A stretch of 23,604 bases of DNA, taken from a virus. The stretch's first letter is position 1; every line of letters starts with the position of its first letter. The position numbers and the translations under genes are program-made. The stretch is taken from positions 1 to 23,604 of the IMG/VR virus record IMGVR_UViG_3300049048_000090. One strand, 5' to 3'. The notes below the pieces were generated by a model. It made no database searches. It was not told the origin of the DNA and saw nothing but the letters and a program-made list of their open reading frames with translations. Shown here piece by piece: positions 15,627 through 20,907 of the stretch.

Positions 15627-15782
15627 TACGAAGACTGAATAGGCCTGTGGCGAAATGGTAAACGTGCTGGCTGTAGCCTAAAGCGTGGTTGCTCACGCGG
15701 CGAAACTGGTCTCCCTGAACCGAAGCAAACGGTGCCTTGGGGTTGCAGGTTCAAGTCCTGCCGGGCCTATTCAGTTTTCGTA
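15627..15782 (+). ncRNA. tRNA-like RNA with a 21-bp closing stem
   Basis: Bases 15627-15647 pair with 15762-15782 in 21 consecutive pairs (two G-T). Inside, 15650-15652 with 15663-15665 make a D-arm with loop AAATGGTAAA, and 15745-15749 with 15757-15761 make a T-arm with canonical loop TTCAAGT. Together they look like the two arms of a leucine-type tRNA. The part between them (15666-15744) is about 45 bases too long for any tRNA. It holds extra hairpins (15683-15687 with 15694-15698; 15719-15722 with 15730-15733) and no clean anticodon stem. No CCA is encoded. It may be a tRNA-mimic RNA, a Y-RNA-like module, or a tRNA carrying an insertion. Confidence 0.55.
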
Positions 15783-16933: not shown

Positions 16934-17007
16934 GCAGATGTGATGTAACAGTAACATGACGCGTTGCCAACACGTACATGGGAGTGCGATTCTCCCCACC
17001 TGCACCA
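16934..17007 (+). tRNA. tRNA-Gly(GCC)
   Basis: First tRNA of the array. The acceptor 16934-16940 pairs with 16997-17003 with one A-C mismatch, and CCA is encoded. The D-loop is AACAGTA, without the GG pair. The anticodon loop TTGCCAA gives GCC. The T-loop is TGCGATT, with G at position 55. This is the AG/GC elbow type. A C-A mismatch also sits in the anticodon stem. Confidence 0.82.
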
Positions 17008-17008
17008 T

Positions 17009-17083
17009 GGAGGTAAAACATAGATAGCGATGTTTTCGGCTTTTACCCGAAAAAGGATGGCGCGAATCCATCTGCCTCCACCA
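17009..17083 (+). tRNA. tRNA-Lys(TTT)
   Basis: The acceptor stem has 7 pairs (one G-T), the anticodon stem has 5 perfect pairs with loop CTTTTAC, and CCA is encoded. The D-loop is AGATAGCG and the T-loop CGCGAAT, an AG/GC elbow with C at position 54. It begins 1 base after tRNA-Gly and ends 5 bases before the HNH gene start. Confidence 0.85.
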
Positions 17084-17088
17084 ATTTC

Positions 17089-17598
17089 ATGAAGAAGTGT
17101 TCAAAATGTTCAGAGCATAAACCGGATGACGATTTCTACATATCTAGAGATCGAAAAGATGGCCGACAGTCCTACTGCAAGGTTTGTGAGAAGAAGCATT
17201 ACAAGAATTGGCAGTCATTTTCTCCCGAAAGAAAAATGAGATATGCCGGTTGGAAGCTCGCAAGAATTCAGGAGCTTCGAGCGATAATGACTAAGGAGCT
17301 TGTTGCCAAGGGATGCGTAGATTGCGGCTGTCGAGATATTCGGGTCTTGGACTTCGATCACGTTGAGGGCCAAAAAATCAAAGGCGTTGGACGAGTCGCG
17401 TACTCCGCTTCTAGCGACCAAGCACTTATCGAGGAGATGTCTAAATGTCAGATTCGGTGCGCAAACTGCCACCGTATAGCAACGGCTATAAGAGGAAATT
17501 TCTGGACCCAAAAAGAGTGGGTTCGGTTGAATAGTGAAACGCACGTCGAGGGAGCCATTGAACCCGGTTGTCCGCAAAACAACGCCTTAGCTCAGTGA
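17089..17598 (+). CDS. HNH endonuclease inserted in the tRNA array
   Basis: 169 residues. An N-terminal zinc-ribbon-like region has C4, C7, C30 and C33 (CSKCSEHKPDDDFYI; YCKVCEKKHY). The nuclease domain has C76, C79, the catalytic DH pair at 90-91 (VLDFDHVEG) and C124, C127, H128 (CANCHR), a treble-clef HNH fold. The ATG follows tRNA-Lys by 5 bases. The last 58 bases overlap tRNA-Cys, and the TGA stop is the first three bases of that tRNA's T-loop. Free-standing HNH genes of this kind are usually homing endonucleases. Its place suggests mobility within the tRNA cluster, though a host- or DNA-processing role is possible. Confidence 0.85.
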   Translation: MKKCSKCSEHKPDDDFYISRDRKDGRQSYCKVCEKKHYKNWQSFSPERKMRYAGWKLARIQELRAIMTKELVAKGCVDCGCRDIRVLDFDHVEGQKIKGVGRVAYSASSDQALIEEMSKCQIRCANCHRIATAIRGNFWTQKEWVRLNSETHVEGAIEPGCPQNNALAQ

Positions 17599-17618
17599 GA
17601 CACTGAGGACGTGCTCCA
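17541..17618 (+). tRNA. tRNA-Cys(GCA), overlapping HNH gene
   Basis: The acceptor stem is a perfect 7 pairs (17541-17547 with 17608-17614), the discriminator is T and CCA is encoded. The D-stem has 3 pairs with loop AGCCATTGAA. The anticodon stem has 5 perfect pairs with loop CCGCAAA (C at position 33). The T-arm CTCAG/CTGAG has loop TGAGACA. The elbow has T19-A56 instead of G19-C56. The first 58 bases lie inside the HNH reading frame. Confidence 0.78.
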
Positions 17619-17626
17619 CACTTTAT

Positions 17627-17702
17627 GGGGGATTAGCTCATTCAGCAGAGCGTCAAGCTTGCACCTTGAAGGCGACCGGAGCATAGCCGGTATTCTCCAC
17701 CA
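17627..17702 (+). tRNA. tRNA-Ala(TGC)
   Basis: The acceptor stem has 7 pairs including two G-T, the D-stem is GCTC/GAGC and the anticodon stem has 5 pairs with loop CTTGCAC; CCA is encoded. The D-loop is ATTCAGCA and the T-loop AGCATAG, an AG/GC elbow whose T-loop begins with A instead of T. All stems are intact despite the odd loops. Confidence 0.88.
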
Positions 17703-17761
17703 TCTTGGGATTCACCTCCCGTGGCTAGAGGCCACCGCAAGGGCCGCGATAGTGTCCACCA
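17703..17761 (+). other. Tandem hairpin spacer ending in CCA
   Basis: Three hairpins follow one another: 17707-17710 with 17717-17720; 17721-17725 with 17731-17735 (perfect, 5-base loop); and 17736-17738 with 17746-17748. The stretch ends TCCACCA like a tRNA, but no 5' acceptor strand exists for it. It may be a degraded tRNA or a structured spacer. Confidence 0.4.
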
Positions 17762-17766
17762 ATTTA

Positions 17767-17835
17767 GCTGGTTTCCATGGCGGGGGCTGATCCCCTCTGT
17801 TTTTGGCCGTCCGCCTCAAGGATAAACTAGCACCA
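17767..17835 (+). tRNA. D-arm-less tRNA, probably Ile(GAT)
   Basis: The acceptor stem has 7 pairs (one G-T), the discriminator is A and CCA is encoded. Only 8 bases (TCCATGGC) separate the acceptor from an anticodon stem with loop CTGATCC, so there is no normal D-arm. The T-arm has 4 pairs and loop GCCTCAA. The GG of the shrunken D region could still pair with C55-C56. A one-base shift of the loop would give TGA (Ser), so the identity is uncertain. Confidence 0.55.
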
Positions 17836-17839
17836 ATTT

Positions 17840-17888
17840 GACGTGATAGGGCAGTCTCCGCGTCGTTAAATAAGTTTATCTGTCGCCA
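17840..17888 (+). other. 49-base mini tRNA-like element
   Basis: GACG(T)GAT at 17840-17847 can pair with ATCTGTC at 17878-17884 with one bulge, followed by G and CCA. Inside is a 3-bp hairpin with loop CAGTC, but no room for both anticodon and T-arms. It may be a deleted tRNA remnant or a spacer. An alternative hairpin, 17840-17843 with 17861-17864, also exists. Confidence 0.3.
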
Positions 17889-17889
17889 T

Positions 17890-17964
17890 GCGTTTCAGTT
17901 GTTTATAGATGCAAGCGAGTCTTCCAAACTTGAAGAGTGGGCGCAATACCCACGAAACGCACCA
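17890..17964 (+). tRNA. tRNA-Gly(TCC)
   Basis: The acceptor stem is 7 perfect pairs (GCGTTTC/GAAACGC), the anticodon stem has 5 pairs with loop CTTCCAA and CCA is encoded. The D-loop is TTATAGAT and the T-loop CGCAATA with a perfect GTGGG/CCCAC stem. AG/GC elbow type, with C at position 54. Confidence 0.87.
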
Positions 17965-17965
17965 C

Positions 17966-18051
17966 CCGCCAGTCGCATAGCAGCAATTGCAGGAGATTGT
18001 AACCCTCCCGGCCTTCGGGCCTACGTAGGTGCGAGTCCTACCTGGGGACCA
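17966..18051 (+). tRNA. tRNA-Tyr(GTA)
   Basis: Class II tRNA with a long variable arm (GGCC TTCG GGCC) and CCA. The anticodon loop TTGTAAC gives GTA, with an A-C mismatch closing the stem. The D-loop TAGCAGCAAT and T-loop TGCGAGT form an AG/GC elbow. The acceptor is imperfect (bulge or G-G mismatch near its end), so the 5' boundary is uncertain by 1-2 bases. Confidence 0.78.
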
Positions 18052-18106
18052 TTTTGCAAACGCTGACAAGCAGCGAAAGGGCGGTTGACGCTCCTTGATA
18101 ATTTAC
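18052..18106 (+). other. Spacer with two hairpins in the tRNA array
   Basis: This 55-base gap has no tRNA and no CCA. It holds a perfect 5-bp hairpin (18061-18065 with 18071-18075) and a second one (18079-18083 with 18089-18093), each with a 5-base loop. It is far longer than the usual 1-9 base spacers of the array. Confidence 0.45.
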
Positions 18107-18180
18107 GGTGATGTAGTTTAACAGCAAAACCTGCGGTCGATAACCGCAAGAAGAAGGGGCAGTACCTTCCTTCACCACCA
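18107..18180 (+). tRNA. tRNA-Ile(GAT)
   Basis: The acceptor stem has 6 of 7 pairs (one T-T), the D-stem GTTT/AAAC carries loop AACAGCA, and the anticodon stem is perfect with loop TCGATAA (C at 33). The T-stem GAAGG/CCTTC has loop GGCAGTA, and CCA is encoded. AG/GC elbow with a G-type T-loop. Confidence 0.83.
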
Positions 18181-18181
18181 T

Positions 18182-18252
18182 AGGTCCGAGCAGAAGCTGC
18201 GATTGAGCCTCCAAAACTCAAGATGAGGGAGCATTACCTTCCGGACCTGCCA
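18182..18252 (+). tRNA. tRNA-Trp(CCA) with reduced D-arm
   Basis: The acceptor stem is 7 perfect pairs (AGGTCCG/CGGACCT), the discriminator is G and CCA is encoded. The anticodon loop CTCCAAA gives CCA, with a C-A mismatch closing the stem. The D-arm is only GCAG-AAG-CTGC, a 3-base loop. The T-loop is AGCATTA. The AG of the mini D-loop still matches the AG/GC pattern. Confidence 0.78.
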
Positions 18253-18258
18253 CTTTAT

Positions 18259-18330
18259 GGAGTTCGTGATAGTTCACAGTTGCGCCTGAAGAGTGCGACG
18301 GATGCGGCGCGAAACCGCAGGACTCCACCA
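18259..18330 (+). tRNA. tRNA-Phe(GAA) with reduced D-arm
   Basis: The acceptor stem has 7 pairs (one G-T) and CCA is encoded. The D region is a 4-bp stem GTGA/TCAC with 4-base loop TAGT. The anticodon loop CTGAAGA gives GAA. The T-stem TGCGG/CCGCA has loop CGCGAAA. AG/GC elbow type. Confidence 0.78.
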
Positions 18331-18336
18331 TTTTAT

Positions 18337-18408
18337 AGCAGGGTAGTGTAATGTAGCACGCAAGGCTCATAACCTTGAAATTCCGTATCAAGTCGGACTC
18401 TGCTCCCA
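18337..18408 (+). tRNA. tRNA-Met or Ile2 (CAT)
   Basis: The acceptor stem has 7 pairs (one G-T), the discriminator is C and CCA is encoded. The anticodon stem is perfect with loop CTCATAA. The D-loop is AATGTA. The T-arm has only 4 pairs and an 8-base loop, TATCAAGT, so this is the one tRNA whose elbow pairing I cannot assign cleanly. It shows no initiator features (C-A at 1-72, GGG/CCC in the anticodon stem). Confidence 0.75.
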
Positions 18409-18414
18409 ATTTAT

Positions 18415-18490
18415 CAGGATGTGGTGCCAAAGGCTGGCGACTCCGCTTGGAACGGAGATTATGTGGGTTCGAGTCCCATCGTCCTGACCA
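18415..18490 (+). tRNA. tRNA-Pro(TGG)
   Basis: The acceptor stem has 7 pairs (one G-T), the anticodon stem is perfect with loop CTTGGAA and CCA is encoded. This is one of the few canonical elbows: D-loop AAAGGCT with GG and T-loop TTCGAGT with TTC. Confidence 0.88.
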
Positions 18491-18494
18491 TTTT

Positions 18495-18570
18495 GCTGCT
18501 GAGTTCAACTAGTGTTGATGGGTGTCTGTCTAACACCTTTAGGCGAGTGCAATTCTCGTCAGCAGCGCCA
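18495..18570 (+). tRNA. tRNA-Asp(GTC)
   Basis: The acceptor stem is 7 perfect pairs (GCTGCTG/CAGCAGC), the discriminator is G and CCA is encoded. The anticodon stem is perfect with loop CTGTCTA. The D-arm is a 5-bp stem TCAAC/GTTGA with 4-base loop TAGT, and the T-loop is TGCAATT. AG/GC elbow in a shortened D-loop. Confidence 0.83.
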
Positions 18571-18576
18571 TTTTAT

Positions 18577-18651
18577 GCCCGGTTCGTCCAGCAGCTAGGA
18601 CGGCAGTTTTACATACTGCTTACGAGGGTGCGAGTCCTTCATCGGGTACCA
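18577..18651 (+). tRNA. tRNA-Val(TAC)
   Basis: The acceptor stem has 7 pairs (two G-T), the D-stem is GTCC/GGAC with loop AGCAGCTA, and the anticodon stem is perfect with loop TTTACAT. The T-loop is TGCGAGT and CCA is encoded. AG/GC elbow type. Confidence 0.87.
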
Positions 18652-18656
18652 TTTAT

Positions 18657-18731
18657 TGCTCAGTAGTGTTAAAGTCACACGGCGTCCTGTTAAGACGACA
18701 ATTGCATGTGCGAGTCATGCCTGAGCAGCCA
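18657..18731 (+). tRNA. tRNA-Asn(GTT)
   Basis: The acceptor stem is 7 perfect pairs (TGCTCAG/CTGAGCA), the discriminator is G and CCA is encoded. The D-stem is 3 pairs with loop TTAAAGT. The anticodon loop CTGTTAA has 4 pairs below it, and the T-loop is TGCGAGT on a perfect stem. AG/GC elbow type. Confidence 0.82.
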
Positions 18732-18740
18732 TTTTCTTAC

Positions 18741-18815
18741 GGTCCTTTCGTATATTACGTATTACCTTCGTCTTTGAAACGAATGAACAAGGTGCAATTC
18801 CTTGAGGGACTGCCA
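18741..18815 (+). tRNA. tRNA-Gln(TTG)
   Basis: The acceptor stem has 7 pairs (two G-T), the anticodon stem TTCGT/ACGAA is perfect with loop CTTTGAA and CCA is encoded. The D-stem GTA/TAC carries loop TATTACGTAT and the T-loop is TGCAATT. The likely elbow is C18-G55 and G19-C56, a further variant. Confidence 0.8.
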
Positions 18816-18816
18816 T

Positions 18817-18890
18817 TGTCAATTGGCGTAACAGTAACGCGGCGCACTCTGAATGCGCAGTCGGTGGGGCAGCACCATCATTGACAGCCA
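18817..18890 (+). tRNA. tRNA-Gln(CTG)
   Basis: All four stems are well paired: acceptor TGTCAAT/ATTGACA, D-stem GCGT/ACGC with loop AACAGTA, anticodon stem perfect with loop CTCTGAA, and T-loop GGCAGCA. CCA is encoded. AG/GC elbow with a G-type T-loop. Confidence 0.87.
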
Positions 18891-18894
18891 CTTT

Positions 18895-18969
18895 GGGCCA
18901 CAAGCATTAACAGTGATGCACTTCGCTCTTAACGATGTGAACAGGGAGCATTACCCTGGCGGCCCACCA
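18895..18969 (+). tRNA. tRNA-Lys(CTT)
   Basis: The acceptor stem has 6 of 7 pairs (A-C mismatch), the D-stem is GCAT/ATGC with loop TAACAGTG, the anticodon loop CTCTTAA gives CTT (one T-T in the stem), and the T-stem CAGGG/CCCTG has loop AGCATTA. CCA is encoded. AG/GC elbow type. Confidence 0.83.
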
Positions 18970-19027
18970 TTCATCCCATGATGCCGGATAGGCGTCATGC
19001 CCCGTCAGCCCTGTGGCTGGCGGATAT
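18970..19027 (+). other. Spacer with two strong hairpins in the tRNA array
   Basis: Two 9-bp hairpins stand in tandem: 18977-18985 with 18991-18999 (loop GGATA) and 19002-19010 with 19015-19023 (loop CTGT). No tRNA, ORF or T-run is present. It could be an RNA processing or stabilising element, or the remains of inserted DNA. Confidence 0.5.
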
Positions 19028-19099
19028 TGGAGGTGATTCAGCAATACGCAGACTCTCATAAGGTCAGCGAAACGAGGGCAGCACTCGTACCTCCATCCA
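19028..19099 (+). tRNA. second CAT tRNA (Met, fMet or Ile2)
   Basis: The acceptor stem is 7 perfect pairs (TGGAGGT/ACCTCCA), the discriminator is T and CCA is encoded. The D-arm is ATT/AAT with 4-base loop CAGC. The anticodon loop is CTCATAA, and the T-stem ACGAG/CTCGT has loop GGCAGCA. AG/GC elbow type. Initiator hallmarks are absent, so a lysidine-type Ile2 tRNA is possible. Confidence 0.78.
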
Positions 19100-19105
19100 A
19101 TTTAC

Positions 19106-19181
19106 GGTCCTCAAATTCTGATAGCGGAATGAATTCTTGGTAAGAATTATGTGGCGAGTGCAATTCTCGCGTGGACCTCCA
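19106..19181 (+). tRNA. tRNA-Thr(GGT)
   Basis: The acceptor stem has 6 of 7 pairs, the D-stem is ATTC/GAAT with loop TGATAGCG, the anticodon stem is perfect with loop TTGGTAA, and the T-stem GCGAG/CTCGC has loop TGCAATT. CCA is encoded. AG/GC elbow type. Confidence 0.86.
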
Positions 19182-19186
19182 TTTAT

Positions 19187-19270
19187 GCGCATGTGACCTA
19201 AAAGCGAATAGCACAGCGTCTGAGCTTAGAACTCAGGGTTTTGCGGGTGCAAGTCCTGCCATGCGCACCA
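19187..19270 (+). tRNA. tRNA-Leu(TAG) with short variable loop and long D region
   Basis: The acceptor stem is 7 perfect pairs (GCGCATG/CATGCGC), the anticodon stem CTGAG/CTCAG is perfect with loop CTTAGAA, the T-loop is TGCAAGT and CCA is encoded. The variable loop is only 6 bases, unlike normal class II Leu tRNAs. The D region is about 26 bases, with a 10-base linker before a GCG/CGT stem. Loop AATAGCACAG fits the AG/GC elbow. Confidence 0.75.
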
Positions 19271-19278
19271 ATTTCCGT

Positions 19279-19353
19279 GGCCCATTCGACCATCAACTAA
19301 GTCGCTGCGTTTTCACCGCAGAGAAGAGAGGGTAGCACTCTCATGGGCTACCA
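19279..19353 (+). tRNA. tRNA-Glu(TTC) with A19-T56 elbow
   Basis: The acceptor stem has 7 pairs (one G-T), the D-stem is GAC/GTC with loop CATCAACTAA, the anticodon stem is perfect with loop TTTTCAC, and the T-stem GAGAG/CTCTC has loop GGTAGCA. CCA is encoded. The T-loop has T at 56, and the D-loop has A where the others have G, a compensatory A-T pair. Confidence 0.85.
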
Positions 19354-19357
19354 CTTT

Positions 19358-19434
19358 CGGGTCATAGCCCAATCGGTAGAGGCACCTGCCTTAAGAGCAG
19401 GTCAGTGAGGGTCCGAATCCCTCTGGCCCGACCA
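19358..19434 (+). tRNA. tRNA-Leu(TAA) with short variable loop
   Basis: The acceptor stem has 7 pairs (one G-T), the anticodon stem CCTGC/GCAGG is perfect with loop CTTAAGA and CCA is encoded. The D-loop AATCGGTAGA keeps GG and the T-loop is TCCGAAT, so G18-C55 and G19-C56 are possible. The variable loop has 5 bases, class I size, although Leu tRNAs of bacteria are class II. Confidence 0.85.
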
Positions 19435-19439
19435 TTCAT

Positions 19440-19531
19440 GGTCGTGTAGTTTAAGGAAAACCGCCGCCCTTATAAAGCGGATCGCACTAGATGAGTGCCG
19501 AACGTGGGATCGTTACCCACCACGACCACCA
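19440..19531 (+). tRNA. tRNA with anticodon TAT (Ile?) and long variable arm
   Basis: The acceptor stem is 7 perfect pairs (GGTCGTG/CACGACC) and CCA is encoded. The D-stem GTTT/AAAC has loop AAGGA with GG. The anticodon loop CTTATAA has a C-A mismatch closing its stem. A 5-bp variable arm GCACT/AGTGC is present, and the T-loop is ATCGTTA. The elbow is GG with TC. A class II arm on an Ile-type anticodon is unexpected. Confidence 0.72.
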
Positions 19532-19532
19532 C

Positions 19533-19607
19533 TGTCCTTACCCCGAGAGAGCGCGGGCCTCGTTTCGTAATCGAGAGTAGGCGGCTGCAATGCCGCAAGG
19601 ACATCCA
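19533..19607 (+). tRNA. tRNA-Thr(CGT)
   Basis: The acceptor stem is 7 perfect pairs (TGTCCTT/AAGGACA), the discriminator is T and CCA is encoded. The D-stem CCC/GGG has loop GAGAGAGCGC. The anticodon loop TTCGTAA has a T-T closing mismatch. The T-stem GCGGC/GCCGC has a 6-base loop TGCAAT. AG/GC elbow, with one T-loop base missing. Confidence 0.8.
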
Positions 19608-19613
19608 CTTTAT

Positions 19614-19687
19614 TCTGGCTAGTATTCAGTAATCCAGCCGCCCTTGTAGCGCGGATGAAGCCGGGGCAGCACCGGCAGCCAGATCCA
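19614..19687 (+). tRNA. tRNA-Thr(TGT)
   Basis: The acceptor stem is 7 perfect pairs (TCTGGCT/AGCCAGA), the discriminator is T and CCA is encoded. The D-arm is ATT/AAT with loop CAGT. The anticodon loop CTTGTAG has a C-C closing mismatch. The T-stem GCCGG/CCGGC has loop GGCAGCA. AG/GC elbow type. Confidence 0.82.
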
Positions 19688-19689
19688 TG

Positions 19690-19763
19690 GGGATTGTGAG
19701 GTAATAGTAGCCTACCAGCATGTGAAGCTGGGTGCACAGGAGCATAACCTGTCATTCCCACCA
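19690..19763 (+). tRNA. tRNA-His(GTG)
   Basis: The acceptor stem has 6 of 7 pairs (T-T), the D-stem AGGT/GCCT has loop AATAGTA, and the anticodon stem CCAGC/GCTGG is perfect with loop ATGTGAA. The T-stem ACAGG/CCTGT has loop AGCATAA, and CCA is encoded. A G precedes position 1 (a possible G-1), but the discriminator is A rather than the bacterial C. Confidence 0.83.
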
Positions 19764-19768
19764 TTTAC

Positions 19769-19844
19769 GCCGTCATCGTCCAACCATATAGGACACATCT
19801 TTGCGAAAGATGAAATCAAGGTGAGAGTCCTTGTGACGGCACCA
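19769..19844 (+). tRNA. tRNA-Arg(GCG) with T19-A56 elbow
   Basis: The acceptor stem is 7 perfect pairs (GCCGTCA/TGACGGC), the D-stem is GTCC/GGAC with loop AACCATATA, the anticodon stem CATCT/AGATG is perfect with loop TTGCGAA, and the T-stem CAAGG/CCTTG has loop TGAGAGT. CCA is encoded. A at T-loop 56 is matched by T in the D-loop, as in tRNA-Cys. Confidence 0.87.
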
Positions 19845-19848
19845 TTTC

Positions 19849-19924
19849 GCCGCATTCAGCTAGTTACAAAAGCCCAGCACTTCTAAGGCTCGGAACGGAG
19901 GTGGGATTCCTCCATGCGGCACCA
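19849..19924 (+). tRNA. tRNA-Arg(TCT) with C19-G56 elbow
   Basis: The acceptor stem is 7 perfect pairs (GCCGCAT/ATGCGGC) and CCA is encoded. The D-stem GCT/AGC has loop AGTTACAAA. The anticodon loop CTTCTAA gives TCT, above a weak stem (A-G and C-C mismatches). The T-stem GGAGG/CCTCC has loop TGGGATT. G at 56 is matched by C in the D-loop, the fourth Watson-Crick combination in the array. Confidence 0.8.
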
Positions 19925-19925
19925 C

Positions 19926-20000
19926 GCCTGATTCATCTAATGTATAAGATGACGCACTTCGAATGCGTTCATCCCGGTTAAAGTCCGGGGTTGGGCACCA
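19926..20000 (+). tRNA. tRNA-Arg(TCG) with G18-T19 / T55-A56 elbow
   Basis: The acceptor stem has 7 pairs (three G-T), the D-stem ATCT/AGAT has loop AATGTATA, the anticodon stem ACGCA/TGCGT is perfect with loop CTTCGAA, and the T-stem CCCGG/CCGGG has loop TTAAAGT. CCA is encoded. It keeps G18-T55 but replaces G19-C56 by T19-A56. Confidence 0.85.
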
Positions 20001-20001
20001 T

Positions 20002-20077
20002 TTTCCTGTAGCTCAATGTATAGAGCGGCGCACTCCTAAGGCGCAGGCTGTCGGCGAAACTCCGATCAGGAATACCA
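20002..20077 (+). tRNA. tRNA-Arg(CCT)
   Basis: The acceptor stem has 6 pairs with a T-T at the end, the D-stem GCTC/GAGC has loop AATGTATA, and the anticodon loop CTCCTAA has an A-G closing mismatch. The T-stem has 5 pairs (one G-T) with loop CGAAACT, and CCA is encoded. T19-A56 elbow; position 18 is ambiguous. Confidence 0.8.
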
Positions 20078-20078
20078 C

Positions 20079-20169
20079 GGAAGATGAAGCACCTGCGATG
20101 GGCGGGGACTTGTCTTGAAAACAAGGTGTCGTTAAATCGGCTGGAGTTCGAGCCTTCCTTCTTCCGCCA
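20079..20169 (+). tRNA. tRNA-Ser(TGA)
   Basis: Class II tRNA with a variable arm (GTCG/CGGC). The acceptor GGAAGA/TCTTCC is followed by T8-G9, the discriminator is G and CCA is encoded. The anticodon stem CTTGT/ACAAG is perfect with loop CTTGAAA. The D-loop holds GGG, and the T-loop TTCGAGC is canonical, although the T-stem has only 4 pairs. Canonical elbow. Confidence 0.82.
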
Positions 20170-20175
20170 TTTTAT

Positions 20176-20263
20176 AGAGGGTAAACAAGTCAGGGACTTG
20201 ACTGGTTTGCTAAACCATGAGACGCCTTCGGGCGTTGCGTTTCGAGTACGCTGCCCTCTGCCA
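20176..20263 (+). tRNA. tRNA-Ser(GCT)
   Basis: Class II tRNA with a 5-bp variable arm (ACGCC TTCG GGCGT). The acceptor stem has 7 pairs (one T-G), the D-stem is CAAGT/ACTTG with loop CAGGG, the anticodon loop TTGCTAA gives GCT, and the T-loop is TTCGAGT. CCA is encoded. Canonical GG/TC elbow; last tRNA of the array. Confidence 0.86.
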
Positions 20264-20289: not shown

Positions 20290-20907
20290 ATGAGCACCGA
20301 ACATAGCTGCCTCGAAAAATCCATCTGCCTTCAGCTCAACAAGAGCTGGCAAGCCATAGGCGTGCGCAGTGTACGCCAGGCGATCATCTGCCTTTGCGGA
20401 GGAGCTGACGGAGAAGTGCCTGCCATGGCCCTAGACATCACCATGTCTGCTGATGGTGAGCTTGAATCGGCCATTCCCACGAAGTGGGAGGATTGGGTGA
20501 AGCTGCCTGTCCGTGAGCAGGATCTTTCCATTGCCGTTCGTGACGGCGCCATTCGAGCCCCAACCGTCATCATCTGCCAGAACTATAACAAGGTGCCCCA
20601 GAAGATGCCGCGCCTTTCTTCTTCCGGAATTTGGCAGCGTGACGGCGGTGTTTGCCAATATTCTGGCCGCAAGCTTGCCAAGTCTGAAGGCAACATCGAT
20701 CACATCCTACCACGTTCATTAGGTGGCCGCGACAGCTGGGAGAACATGGTGCTTTCCCACAAGCAGATTAATTTCCTCAAGGGCAGCAAAACCAACAAGG
20801 AAGCAGGTCTTCAACTTCTCAAGAAGCCTGTTGCCCCCAAAGCCGTGCCCATATCATTTACCATTCGGGATGCGCGGCATGACCATTGGAAGCCTTTCCT
20901 TCATTAA
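20290..20907 (+). CDS. HNH endonuclease of a common phage family
   Basis: 205 residues. The N-terminal block (CLQLNKSWQAIGVRSVRQAI) and the middle (WEDWVKLPVREQDLSIAVRD; RAPTVIICQNYNKVPQKMPR) are characteristic of phage and prophage HNH proteins. The nuclease domain follows at residues 119-175: CQYSGRKLAKSEGNIDHILP with the catalytic DH at 137-138, then GGRDSWENMV and SHKQINFLKGSKT. Such proteins are homing-like nucleases or take part in DNA packaging and processing. The ATG lies 26 bases after the last tRNA. It is followed after 3 bases by a small basic ORF, so it probably shares the tRNA transcript. Confidence 0.87.
   Translation: MSTEHSCLEKSICLQLNKSWQAIGVRSVRQAIICLCGGADGEVPAMALDITMSADGELESAIPTKWEDWVKLPVREQDLSIAVRDGAIRAPTVIICQNYNKVPQKMPRLSSSGIWQRDGGVCQYSGRKLAKSEGNIDHILPRSLGGRDSWENMVLSHKQINFLKGSKTNKEAGLQLLKKPVAPKAVPISFTIRDARHDHWKPFLH

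What the first reader, a model, noticed from the sequence alone, without database searches (positions are those of the whole stretch)
16934..20263. Compensatory rewiring of the tRNA elbow: D-loop 18-19 and T-loop 55-56 co-vary
Canonical tRNAs have an almost invariant G18-G19 / T55-C56 contact. Here about 19 tRNAs have A18-G19 with G55-C56. Three have T19 with A56 and keep or change 18-55: Cys AGCCATTGAA/TGAGACA, Arg(GCG) AACCATATA/TGAGAGT and Arg(TCG) AATGTATA/TTAAAGT; Arg(CCT) also fits T19-A56. Glu has A19-T56 (CATCAACTAA/GGTAGCA). Arg(TCT) has C19-G56 (AGTTACAAA/TGGGATT). A minority keep GG with TC (Pro, both Ser, TAT tRNA) or GG with CC (Leu TAA). All four Watson-Crick pairs occur at 19-56, while stems and CCA are intact. 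That pattern indicates selection for a folded elbow with a new base code, not decay. My inference is that such tRNAs would escape host enzymes, modification or nucleases that read the canonical elbow.
Basis: partly seen in the sequence, partly recalled or inferred. Interest (0 to 1): 0.95.

Follow-up and report, generated by a model that had tools for sequence, protein, structure and literature searches.

The report
Phage tRNAs with a rewired elbow
A phage carries a set of tRNAs for all 20 amino acids in which the contact that holds the tRNA corner together uses different bases that change in matched pairs, and sets of the same kind sit beside RNA-repair genes in bacterial chromosomes, which suggests spare tRNAs built to survive attacks that read the normal tRNA corner.

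Summary
The window holds 32 tRNA genes (16934-20263) for all 20 amino acids. In 28 of 30 scorable genes the D-loop holds the dinucleotide predicted from T-loop bases 55-56 (permutation mean 15.1, p=1e-5). The code recurs in tRNAs from viral and bacterial arrays that were not selected for it. Among 237 tRNAs with unambiguous D-loops, 18-55 is G-T 146 and A-G 86, never A-T. It held in 11 independent switches on supported branches. A57/G57 is invariant, and Ala G3:U70 and discriminator bases are kept, so these look like chargeable tRNAs. A18-G55 matches the UGNRA triloop plus outside A known from riboswitches, a composite GNRA loop. In Verrucomicrobiota chromosomes, whole arrays of this type lie beside RtcB, Ro60/TROVE, RlaP, Band-7 and a sigma factor (RtcB on the same contig, within 0.4-17 kb, in 9 of 16 genomes). 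Where tested, the other host tRNAs have the canonical T-loop and TruB is present. The window keeps the array plus the HNH gene that follows such arrays. Best explanation: a backup tRNA set that escapes elbow-reading nucleases or enzymes. The structure is well supported; the function is inferred.

The parts
16934..20263 (+). tRNA array: 32 tRNA genes, all 20 amino acids, most with encoded CCA; interrupted by an HNH ORF
16934..17007 (+). tRNA-Gly(GCC): D-loop AACAGTA, T-loop TGCGATT (A18-G55, G19-C56)
17009..17083 (+). tRNA-Lys(TTT): A18-G55, G19-C56, C54-A58
17089..17598 (+). HNH endonuclease ORF inside the array (likely homing-type); its 3' end overlaps tRNA-Cys
   Evidence: PHROG 2255; homologues inside other arrays
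17541..17618 (+). tRNA-Cys(GCA): D-loop AGCCATTGAA, T-loop TGAGACA (A18-G55, T19-A56)
17627..17702 (+). tRNA-Ala(TGC): A18-G55, A54-T58; keeps G3:U70
18182..18252 (+). tRNA-Trp(CCA): T-loop AGCATTA, very short D-loop
18415..18490 (+). tRNA-Pro(TGG), canonical GG/TC elbow
18741..18815 (+). tRNA-Gln(TTG): exception, ATTACGTA/TGCAATT (best read C18-G55, G19-C56)
19279..19353 (+). tRNA-Glu(TTC): A18-G55, A19-T56
19769..19844 (+). tRNA-Arg(GCG): A18-G55, T19-A56
19849..19924 (+). tRNA-Arg(TCT): A18-G55, C19-G56
19926..20000 (+). tRNA-Arg(TCG): G18-T55, T19-A56
20002..20077 (+). tRNA-Arg(CCT): T19-A56; 18-55 probably G-G. Nearest relatives are Arg(TCG) of Verrucomicrobiota arrays L155, L217, L160
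20290..20907 (+). HNH protein (205 aa) starting 27 bp after the last tRNA. Full-length homologues (40-46%) directly follow chromosomal G55 arrays that lead into RNA-repair operons

Best explanation
The array encodes real, chargeable tRNAs forming a nearly self-sufficient second tRNA set. Its elbow is held by a different but equivalent contact. In a normal tRNA the T-loop U54-U55-C56-R57-A58 makes a U-turn, G18 slots between 57 and 58 and pairs with pseudouridine 55, and G19 pairs with C56. Here the triloop is G55-N56-R57 and the inserted base is A18, which would complete a composite GNRA loop (G55-N56-R57 plus A18) as in UGNRA T-loop modules of other RNAs; 19-56 stays Watson-Crick in any of its four forms. 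This removes U55, so the tRNA cannot receive pseudouridine 55, and changes G18, so it cannot receive 2'-O-methyl-G18. It should not be cut by nucleases that need the T-psi-C sequence. The phage would use the set to keep translating when host tRNAs are damaged or depleted. In Verrucomicrobiota the same kind of array lies within an apparent RNA-damage operon (TROVE/Ro60, array, HNH, sigma factor, RtcB, Band-7, RlaP, phosphoesterase) as a damage-resistant reserve. Shown: covariation, repeated independent switching, preserved identity elements, linkage. Inferred: the A18-G55 geometry, nuclease escape, induction, use in translation.
For: Window code 28/30, p=1e-5. Unselected viral tRNAs: G55-C56 goes with AG 79/81 versus 82/450 elsewhere; T55-T56 with GA 14/14; T55-A56 with GT 7/7. 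For 7-nt D-loops, mutual information for 18-55 is 0.87 bits and at most 0.18 for every other D/T-loop pair; no A18-T55 in 237. Independent switches: 11 pairs, base 18 goes the same way in 10.9 on average and the other way in 0, p about 0.001; 32 of 48 anticodons occur with both elbows. R57 is invariant in 347/347 G55 tRNAs. Ala G3:U70 in 10/10 G55 Ala tRNAs versus 2/337 others; discriminators match the canonical counterpart 259/347 versus 139 by shuffling. UGNRA triloop plus outside A forms a composite GNRA (PMC2258182). Repair-gene linkage. Host tRNAs GTTC in 18/18 tested; TruB in 10/10 hosts. A tRNase that cuts between T and psi of the T-loop exists (PMC9086364).
Against: No expression, charging, modification or cleavage data. 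No elbow-reading nuclease was identified in these hosts. The window itself has no RtcB, RlaP or TROVE in 23.6 kb, and RtcB was found in only 3 of 15 viral records tested. Canonical-elbow arrays exist in mycobacterial plasmids and Streptomyces phage Moab, so arrays do not need the rewired elbow. G55 also occurs in single chromosomal tRNAs (Glu in Verrucomicrobiota, His in SAR11, Met in Patescibacteria) with no known damage link. Relatives of the window's tail genes carry no detectable array in the stretches held, so the array is not a fixed trait of this phage lineage.
Confidence: 0.55

Rival explanations
1. Modification independence. The A18-G55 elbow is stable without pseudouridine 55 and T54, so tRNAs made in a burst during infection or stress fold well before host enzymes can modify them. 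Nuclease escape plays no part.
For: G55 cannot be pseudouridylated while hosts have TruB. 54-58 also varies in G55 tRNAs (G-G, A-T, C-A, C-C besides T-A), so T54 methylation is also dispensable.
Against: Does not by itself explain linkage to RNA-repair genes, and many rapidly expressed phage tRNA sets keep TTC.
Confidence: 0.2
2. Diversion from translation. Changed elbows weaken EF-Tu or ribosome use so the charged tRNAs serve another pathway, as in staphylococcal cell-wall tRNA-Gly, or they act as decoys for a nuclease or as Ro60 ligands.
For: S. aureus non-proteinogenic tRNA-Gly replaces G18-G19 with UU or CU (PMC4052509); [quoted passage not shown] TROVE lies beside several arrays.
Against: Arrays cover up to 18-20 amino acids with normal anticodon loops, discriminators and Ala G3:U70, which decoys would not need; T-stem pair make-up is broadly like canonical tRNAs.
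Confidence: 0.12
3. Relaxed constraint with drift. Mobile tRNAs are under weak selection and wander between two equally good elbows; the shared type within one array reflects co-inheritance.
For: Two isosteric-like solutions exist; arrays mix both types in many viruses.
Against: Whole arrays are almost purely G55 (24 GC + 1 GG of 25 in G105; 17/17 in L177) although the switch arose many times within isoacceptors; identity elements are not eroded.
Confidence: 0.1

Closest known systems
Canonical tRNA elbow (G18-psi55, G19-C56, T54-A58)
   Same: Cloverleaf, U-turn T-loop with invariant R57, 19-56 Watson-Crick pair, intercalated base 18
   Different: Base code A18-G55 instead of G18-U55; all four pairs used at 19-56; 54-58 also varied
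UGNRA T-loop / lonepair triloop (TPP, AdoCbl and FMN riboswitches; interdigitated T-loops of the L1 stalk and RNase P)
   Same: G at T-loop position 2, R at position 4, outside A completing a composite GNRA (PMC2258182; T-loop modules in PMC4810234)
   Different: Here it appears in the elbow of tRNAs, covarying with the D-loop
tRNA arrays on mobile elements and phages (e.g. mycobacterial plasmids and phages, PMC5966550)
   Same: Dense array, many amino acids, HNH genes inside
   Different: The plasmid arrays examined have canonical TTC T-loops; here most are G55
Bacterial RNA-repair operon rsr-yrl-rtcBA (PMC7790460)
   Same: Ro60/TROVE and RtcB; the known operon responds to damaged tRNAs
   Different: The Verrucomicrobiota version includes an array of up to 25 elbow-variant tRNAs, an HNH gene, a sigma-70-family factor, RlaP and Band-7; the phage window has only array plus HNH
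Phage tRNAs that evade anticodon nucleases (eLife 85183, PMC10264068; Nat Commun 2024, PMC11555353)
   Same: Proposed role: replace tRNAs lost to host nucleases
   Different: Those papers concern the anticodon loop; neither mentions elbow, D-loop or T-loop
Staphylococcal cell-wall tRNA-Gly
   Same: Altered 18-19 positions
   Different: One amino acid, weak EF-Tu binding; here whole sets with normal identity elements

Membership tests
tRNA | Cloverleaf with 7/4/5/5 stems, 7-nt anticodon and T loops, CCA end | tested here: met
   18 strict cloverleafs, 0 in shuffles; the rest looser; Tyr acceptor stem irregular
tRNA | Aminoacylation identity elements | tested here: met
   Ala G3:U70 10/10; discriminators 259/347 versus 139 expected
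tRNA | Transcribed, processed, charged, used by ribosomes | not testable with these tools
   needs tRNA sequencing and biochemistry
Canonical elbow tRNA | G18-G19 with U55-C56 | tested here: not met
   only Pro, two Ser and the TAT tRNA keep GG/TC
UGNRA composite-GNRA T-loop module | G at position 2, R at position 4, partner A outside the loop | tested here: met
   R57 347/347; A18-G55 86 of 89 G55 tRNAs with a 7-nt D-loop
UGNRA composite-GNRA T-loop module | A inserted next to R57 pairing with G55 in three dimensions | not testable with these tools
   sequence covariation only
tRNA array of a mobile element | Many tRNA genes in a dense cluster on a phage or plasmid | tested here: met
   32 tRNAs in 3.3 kb on an IMG/VR virus record
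Ro60-Rtc RNA-repair operon (for the Verrucomicrobiota arrays) | RtcB and Ro60/TROVE encoded together | tested here: met
   RtcB within 0.4-17 kb on the same contig as the array in 9 of 16 genomes, TROVE in 5
Ro60-Rtc RNA-repair operon (for the window) | RtcB and Ro60/TROVE near the array | tested here: not met
   none in 23.6 kb; the record is a fragment
Staphylococcal-type non-proteinogenic tRNA | Single amino acid, weak EF-Tu T-stem pairs | tested here: not met
   all 20 amino acids; T-stem composition similar to canonical

The most novel reading that the evidence does not exclude
Bacteria and phages keep a complete parallel tRNA set with an alternative elbow code that is invisible to elbow-reading nucleases and modifying enzymes, deployed together with RNA-repair enzymes when the normal tRNA pool is attacked. 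This would be a tRNA-level immunity and counter-immunity layer that standard tRNA finders partly miss.
Probability: 0.4. Interest if true: 0.95.

Novelty: new variant of a known kind. Interest (0 to 1): 0.86.

Why it matters
The G18-psi55/G19-C56 contact is usually treated as nearly universal. Here nature has repeatedly re-solved it with a matched base code, across most amino acids, in mobile tRNA sets. That gives hundreds of natural compensatory mutants for testing what RNase P, the ribosome L1 stalk, TruB, TrmH, EF-Tu and tRNA nucleases really read at the elbow. The linkage to Ro60/RtcB/RlaP operons points to a tRNA-replacement arm of bacterial RNA repair that I found no report of, and offers a concrete reason for phage tRNA arrays. 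Common tRNA finders miss many of these genes (ARAGORN finds 8 of 32 here), so the phenomenon is under-annotated.

Tried and rejected
Close relatives of the phage: the capsid-like protein and a 334-aa protein gave none. The tail protein gave 4 distant relatives, none with tRNAs in the stretches held. The window's tail protein was not found in 289 Verrucomicrobiota genomes, so the host phylum is suggested only by array and HNH similarity. BLAST of the array in annotated phages found mainly tRNA-Tyr. Decay was rejected. Descent from one ancestral G55 tRNA was rejected: both elbows occur in 32 of 48 anticodons with at least 41 switches on the tree. Mycobacterial plasmid arrays as the source of the elbow type were rejected: all TTC. 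Several 490-560 aa ORFs beside arrays in GC-rich genomes turned out to be antisense shadows of RtcB or of neighbouring genes and were dropped. The strict pattern found arrays in only 5 of 289 Verrucomicrobiota genomes; it needs one exactly matching tRNA, so this is a lower bound. Paper searches for A18 with G55 in tRNA and for 18-55/19-56 covariation found nothing; the library is open-access only and Burroughs & Aravind 2016 on RNA repair could not be read, so prior mention of tRNA arrays in repair operons is not excluded.
Full report
What was claimed.

Checking the window. ARAGORN sees 8 tRNAs; Rfam sees 15 in the array above its cut-off and two more below or at it, depending on the search. 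A cloverleaf fitter that ignores D- and T-loop consensus finds 18 strict cloverleafs with CCA and none in eight shuffles. Adding the looser ones by hand gives 32 tRNAs for all 20 amino acids. Using the rule 55=U means 18=G, 55=G means 18=A, and 19 complements 56, 28 of 30 D-loops contain the predicted dinucleotide. Shuffling T-loops among tRNAs gives a mean of 15.1 and a maximum of 25 in 100,000, p=1e-5. Leaving out the common A18-G19/G55-C56 class, 10 of 10 fit (mean 3.8, p=2e-4). Two do not fit (Gln TTG and the second Met), two were not scored (Met at 18337, whose T-arm register is ambiguous, and Leu TAA with C55), and Arg(CCT) is ambiguous at 18-55.

Beyond the window. A pattern for A18-G19 ... 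To avoid circularity, tRNAs matching the pattern were set aside and only their neighbours tested. In 531 viral and window tRNAs, G55-C56 goes with AG in 79/81 (82/450 elsewhere, p=8e-46), T55-T56 with GA in 14/14 (p=7e-10), T55-A56 with GT in 7/7, G55-T56 with AA in 3/3, and T55-C56 with GG in 407/411. In 310 genome tRNAs, G55-C56 goes with AG in 195/204 (p=2e-54). With 7-nt D-loops, where 18 and 19 are unambiguous, 237 tRNAs give 18-55 = G-T 146, A-G 86, G-G 3, G-C 2 and never A-T; mutual information is 0.87 bits at 18-55 and at most 0.18 for any other D/T-loop pair. On a tree built without the loops, position 55 switches at least 41 times, and in 11 independent pairs on supported branches base 18 switches the same way in nearly every draw and never the other way (p about 0.001); 32 of 48 anticodons occur with both elbows. 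So the switch happened many times. Even the isolate Serratia phage BF has a G18-A19/T55-T56 tRNA-Pro.

Are they real tRNAs? Position 57 is a purine in all 347 G55 tRNAs and all 527 T55 tRNAs. Ala tRNAs with G55 have G3:U70 in 10 of 10, other G55 tRNAs in 2 of 337. The discriminator base matches that of canonical tRNAs of the same amino acid in 259 of 347 against 139 by shuffling. This is selection for charging, not decay.

Structural reading. G55-N56-R57 with A58 is a UGNRA T-loop. Such triloops commonly take an outside A that pairs with the G to make a composite GNRA loop (PMC2258182). In the tRNA elbow base 18 enters exactly that gap (PMC4810234). A18-G55 is therefore best read as the elbow changing from one known T-loop solution to the other. 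This is inference from sequence; no structure was seen.

Where such arrays live. Besides viruses, G55 tRNAs occur singly (Glu in Verrucomicrobiota, His in SAR11, Met in Patescibacteria) and as nearly pure arrays in Verrucomicrobiota and Chloroflexales genomes. In Chthoniobacter flavus the array is G55 throughout while 18 of 18 other tRNAs examined are GTTC. In one complete genome (handle G105) 25 of 25 array tRNAs have G55. Ten of ten such genomes encode TruB.

Link to RNA repair. Flanking genes are TROVE/Ro60, RtcB, RlaP, Band-7, a sigma-70-family factor, DUF4145, an AAA ATPase and a phosphoesterase. In G105 the order on one strand is array, HNH, sigma, unknown, RtcB, Band-7, DUF4145, RlaP, RlaP, phosphoesterase. 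Similar orders occur in G278 and G188 and in L234 and L152, with TROVE just before the array in G188 and L234. Within stretches of at most 8 kb, 9 of 20 arrays versus 4 of 91 loci with fewer than three G55 tRNAs have TROVE, RlaP, RtcB or Band-7 hits (odds ratio 18 for the first three, p=1.6e-5). In whole genomes RtcB lies on the same contig within 0.4-17 kb of the array in 9 of 16; most of the remainder are fragmented assemblies or lack RtcB.

Tie to the window. The HNH gene that starts 27 bp after the window's last tRNA (20290-20907) has full-length 40-46% homologues immediately downstream, same strand, of many of these chromosomal arrays (78-322 bp in L281, L283, L285, L234, L145, L152, L198). 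Several window tRNAs have their closest relatives there, e.g. Ala, Lys(CTT), Arg(CCT). The window thus looks like a phage-borne version of the array-HNH half of that module. It has no repair genes in the 23.6 kb available. Three of 15 viral records tested carry RtcB, and one viral array (L012) is followed by a CCA-adding-type nucleotidyltransferase.

Function. The known Ro60-RtcB operon of Salmonella is switched on by damaged tRNAs (PMC7790460), phages replace tRNAs cut by anticodon nucleases (PMC10264068; PMC11555353), and at least one tRNase cuts inside T-psi of the T-loop (PMC9086364). A reserve tRNA set that lacks U55 and G18 next to repair enzymes fits a damage-resistant backup. Modification independence is the main rival; diversion from translation and drift are less likely. 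None of this was tested experimentally.

Novelty. Arrays, repair operons and the UGNRA module are each known. I found no report of the elbow code, of whole sets using it, or of its link to RNA repair, within an open-access library only. I rate it a new variant of a known kind with high interest.

Noticed in passing
L281 1042-12887 (G105), L282/L283 (G278), L284/L285 (G188), L217, L155, L234, L249: Chromosomal operon-like module in Verrucomicrobiota: TROVE, G55 tRNA array, HNH, sigma-70-family factor, (AAA), RtcB, Band-7, DUF4145, RlaP x2, phosphoesterase, all on one strand.
   Followed up: yes
G55 tRNAs across loci, positions 54 and 58: The T-loop closing pair 54-58 also varies in matched fashion: T-A, G-G, A-T, C-A, C-C, A-A.
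   Followed up: partly
window 19440-19531; L012 291-382: tRNA with anticodon TAT and a long (22-23 nt) variable arm recurs in two viral arrays; which amino acid it carries is unclear.
   Followed up: no
L140, L158, L199, L209, L237, L241: Single G55 tRNA-Glu(CTC) of Verrucomicrobiota lies about 0.5 kb from a homologue (30-35%) of the window's HNH protein.
   Followed up: partly
window 15641-15769: Rfam tRNA hit of 129 bases with canonical GG/TTC loops and a very long inserted region, outside the array; nature unclear.
   Followed up: no
window 17703-17889 and 18971-19027: Gaps in the array hold CCA-ended segments that look like degenerate or non-standard tRNA genes.
   Followed up: no
L269 (Streptomyces phage Moab): Isolated phage with tRNA cluster, tmRNA, Ro-like protein, Band-7 and RNA ligase: a phage version of the repair plus tRNA combination, but with canonical elbows.
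   Followed up: partly
L012 3463-4884: Poly(A) polymerase / CCA-adding-type enzyme directly after a viral array rich in G55 tRNAs.
   Followed up: no
L131, L146, L163, L176 and other Pelagibacteraceae loci: Housekeeping tRNA-His of SAR11 has A18-G55 (AATAGTTA/TGCRATT).
   Followed up: no
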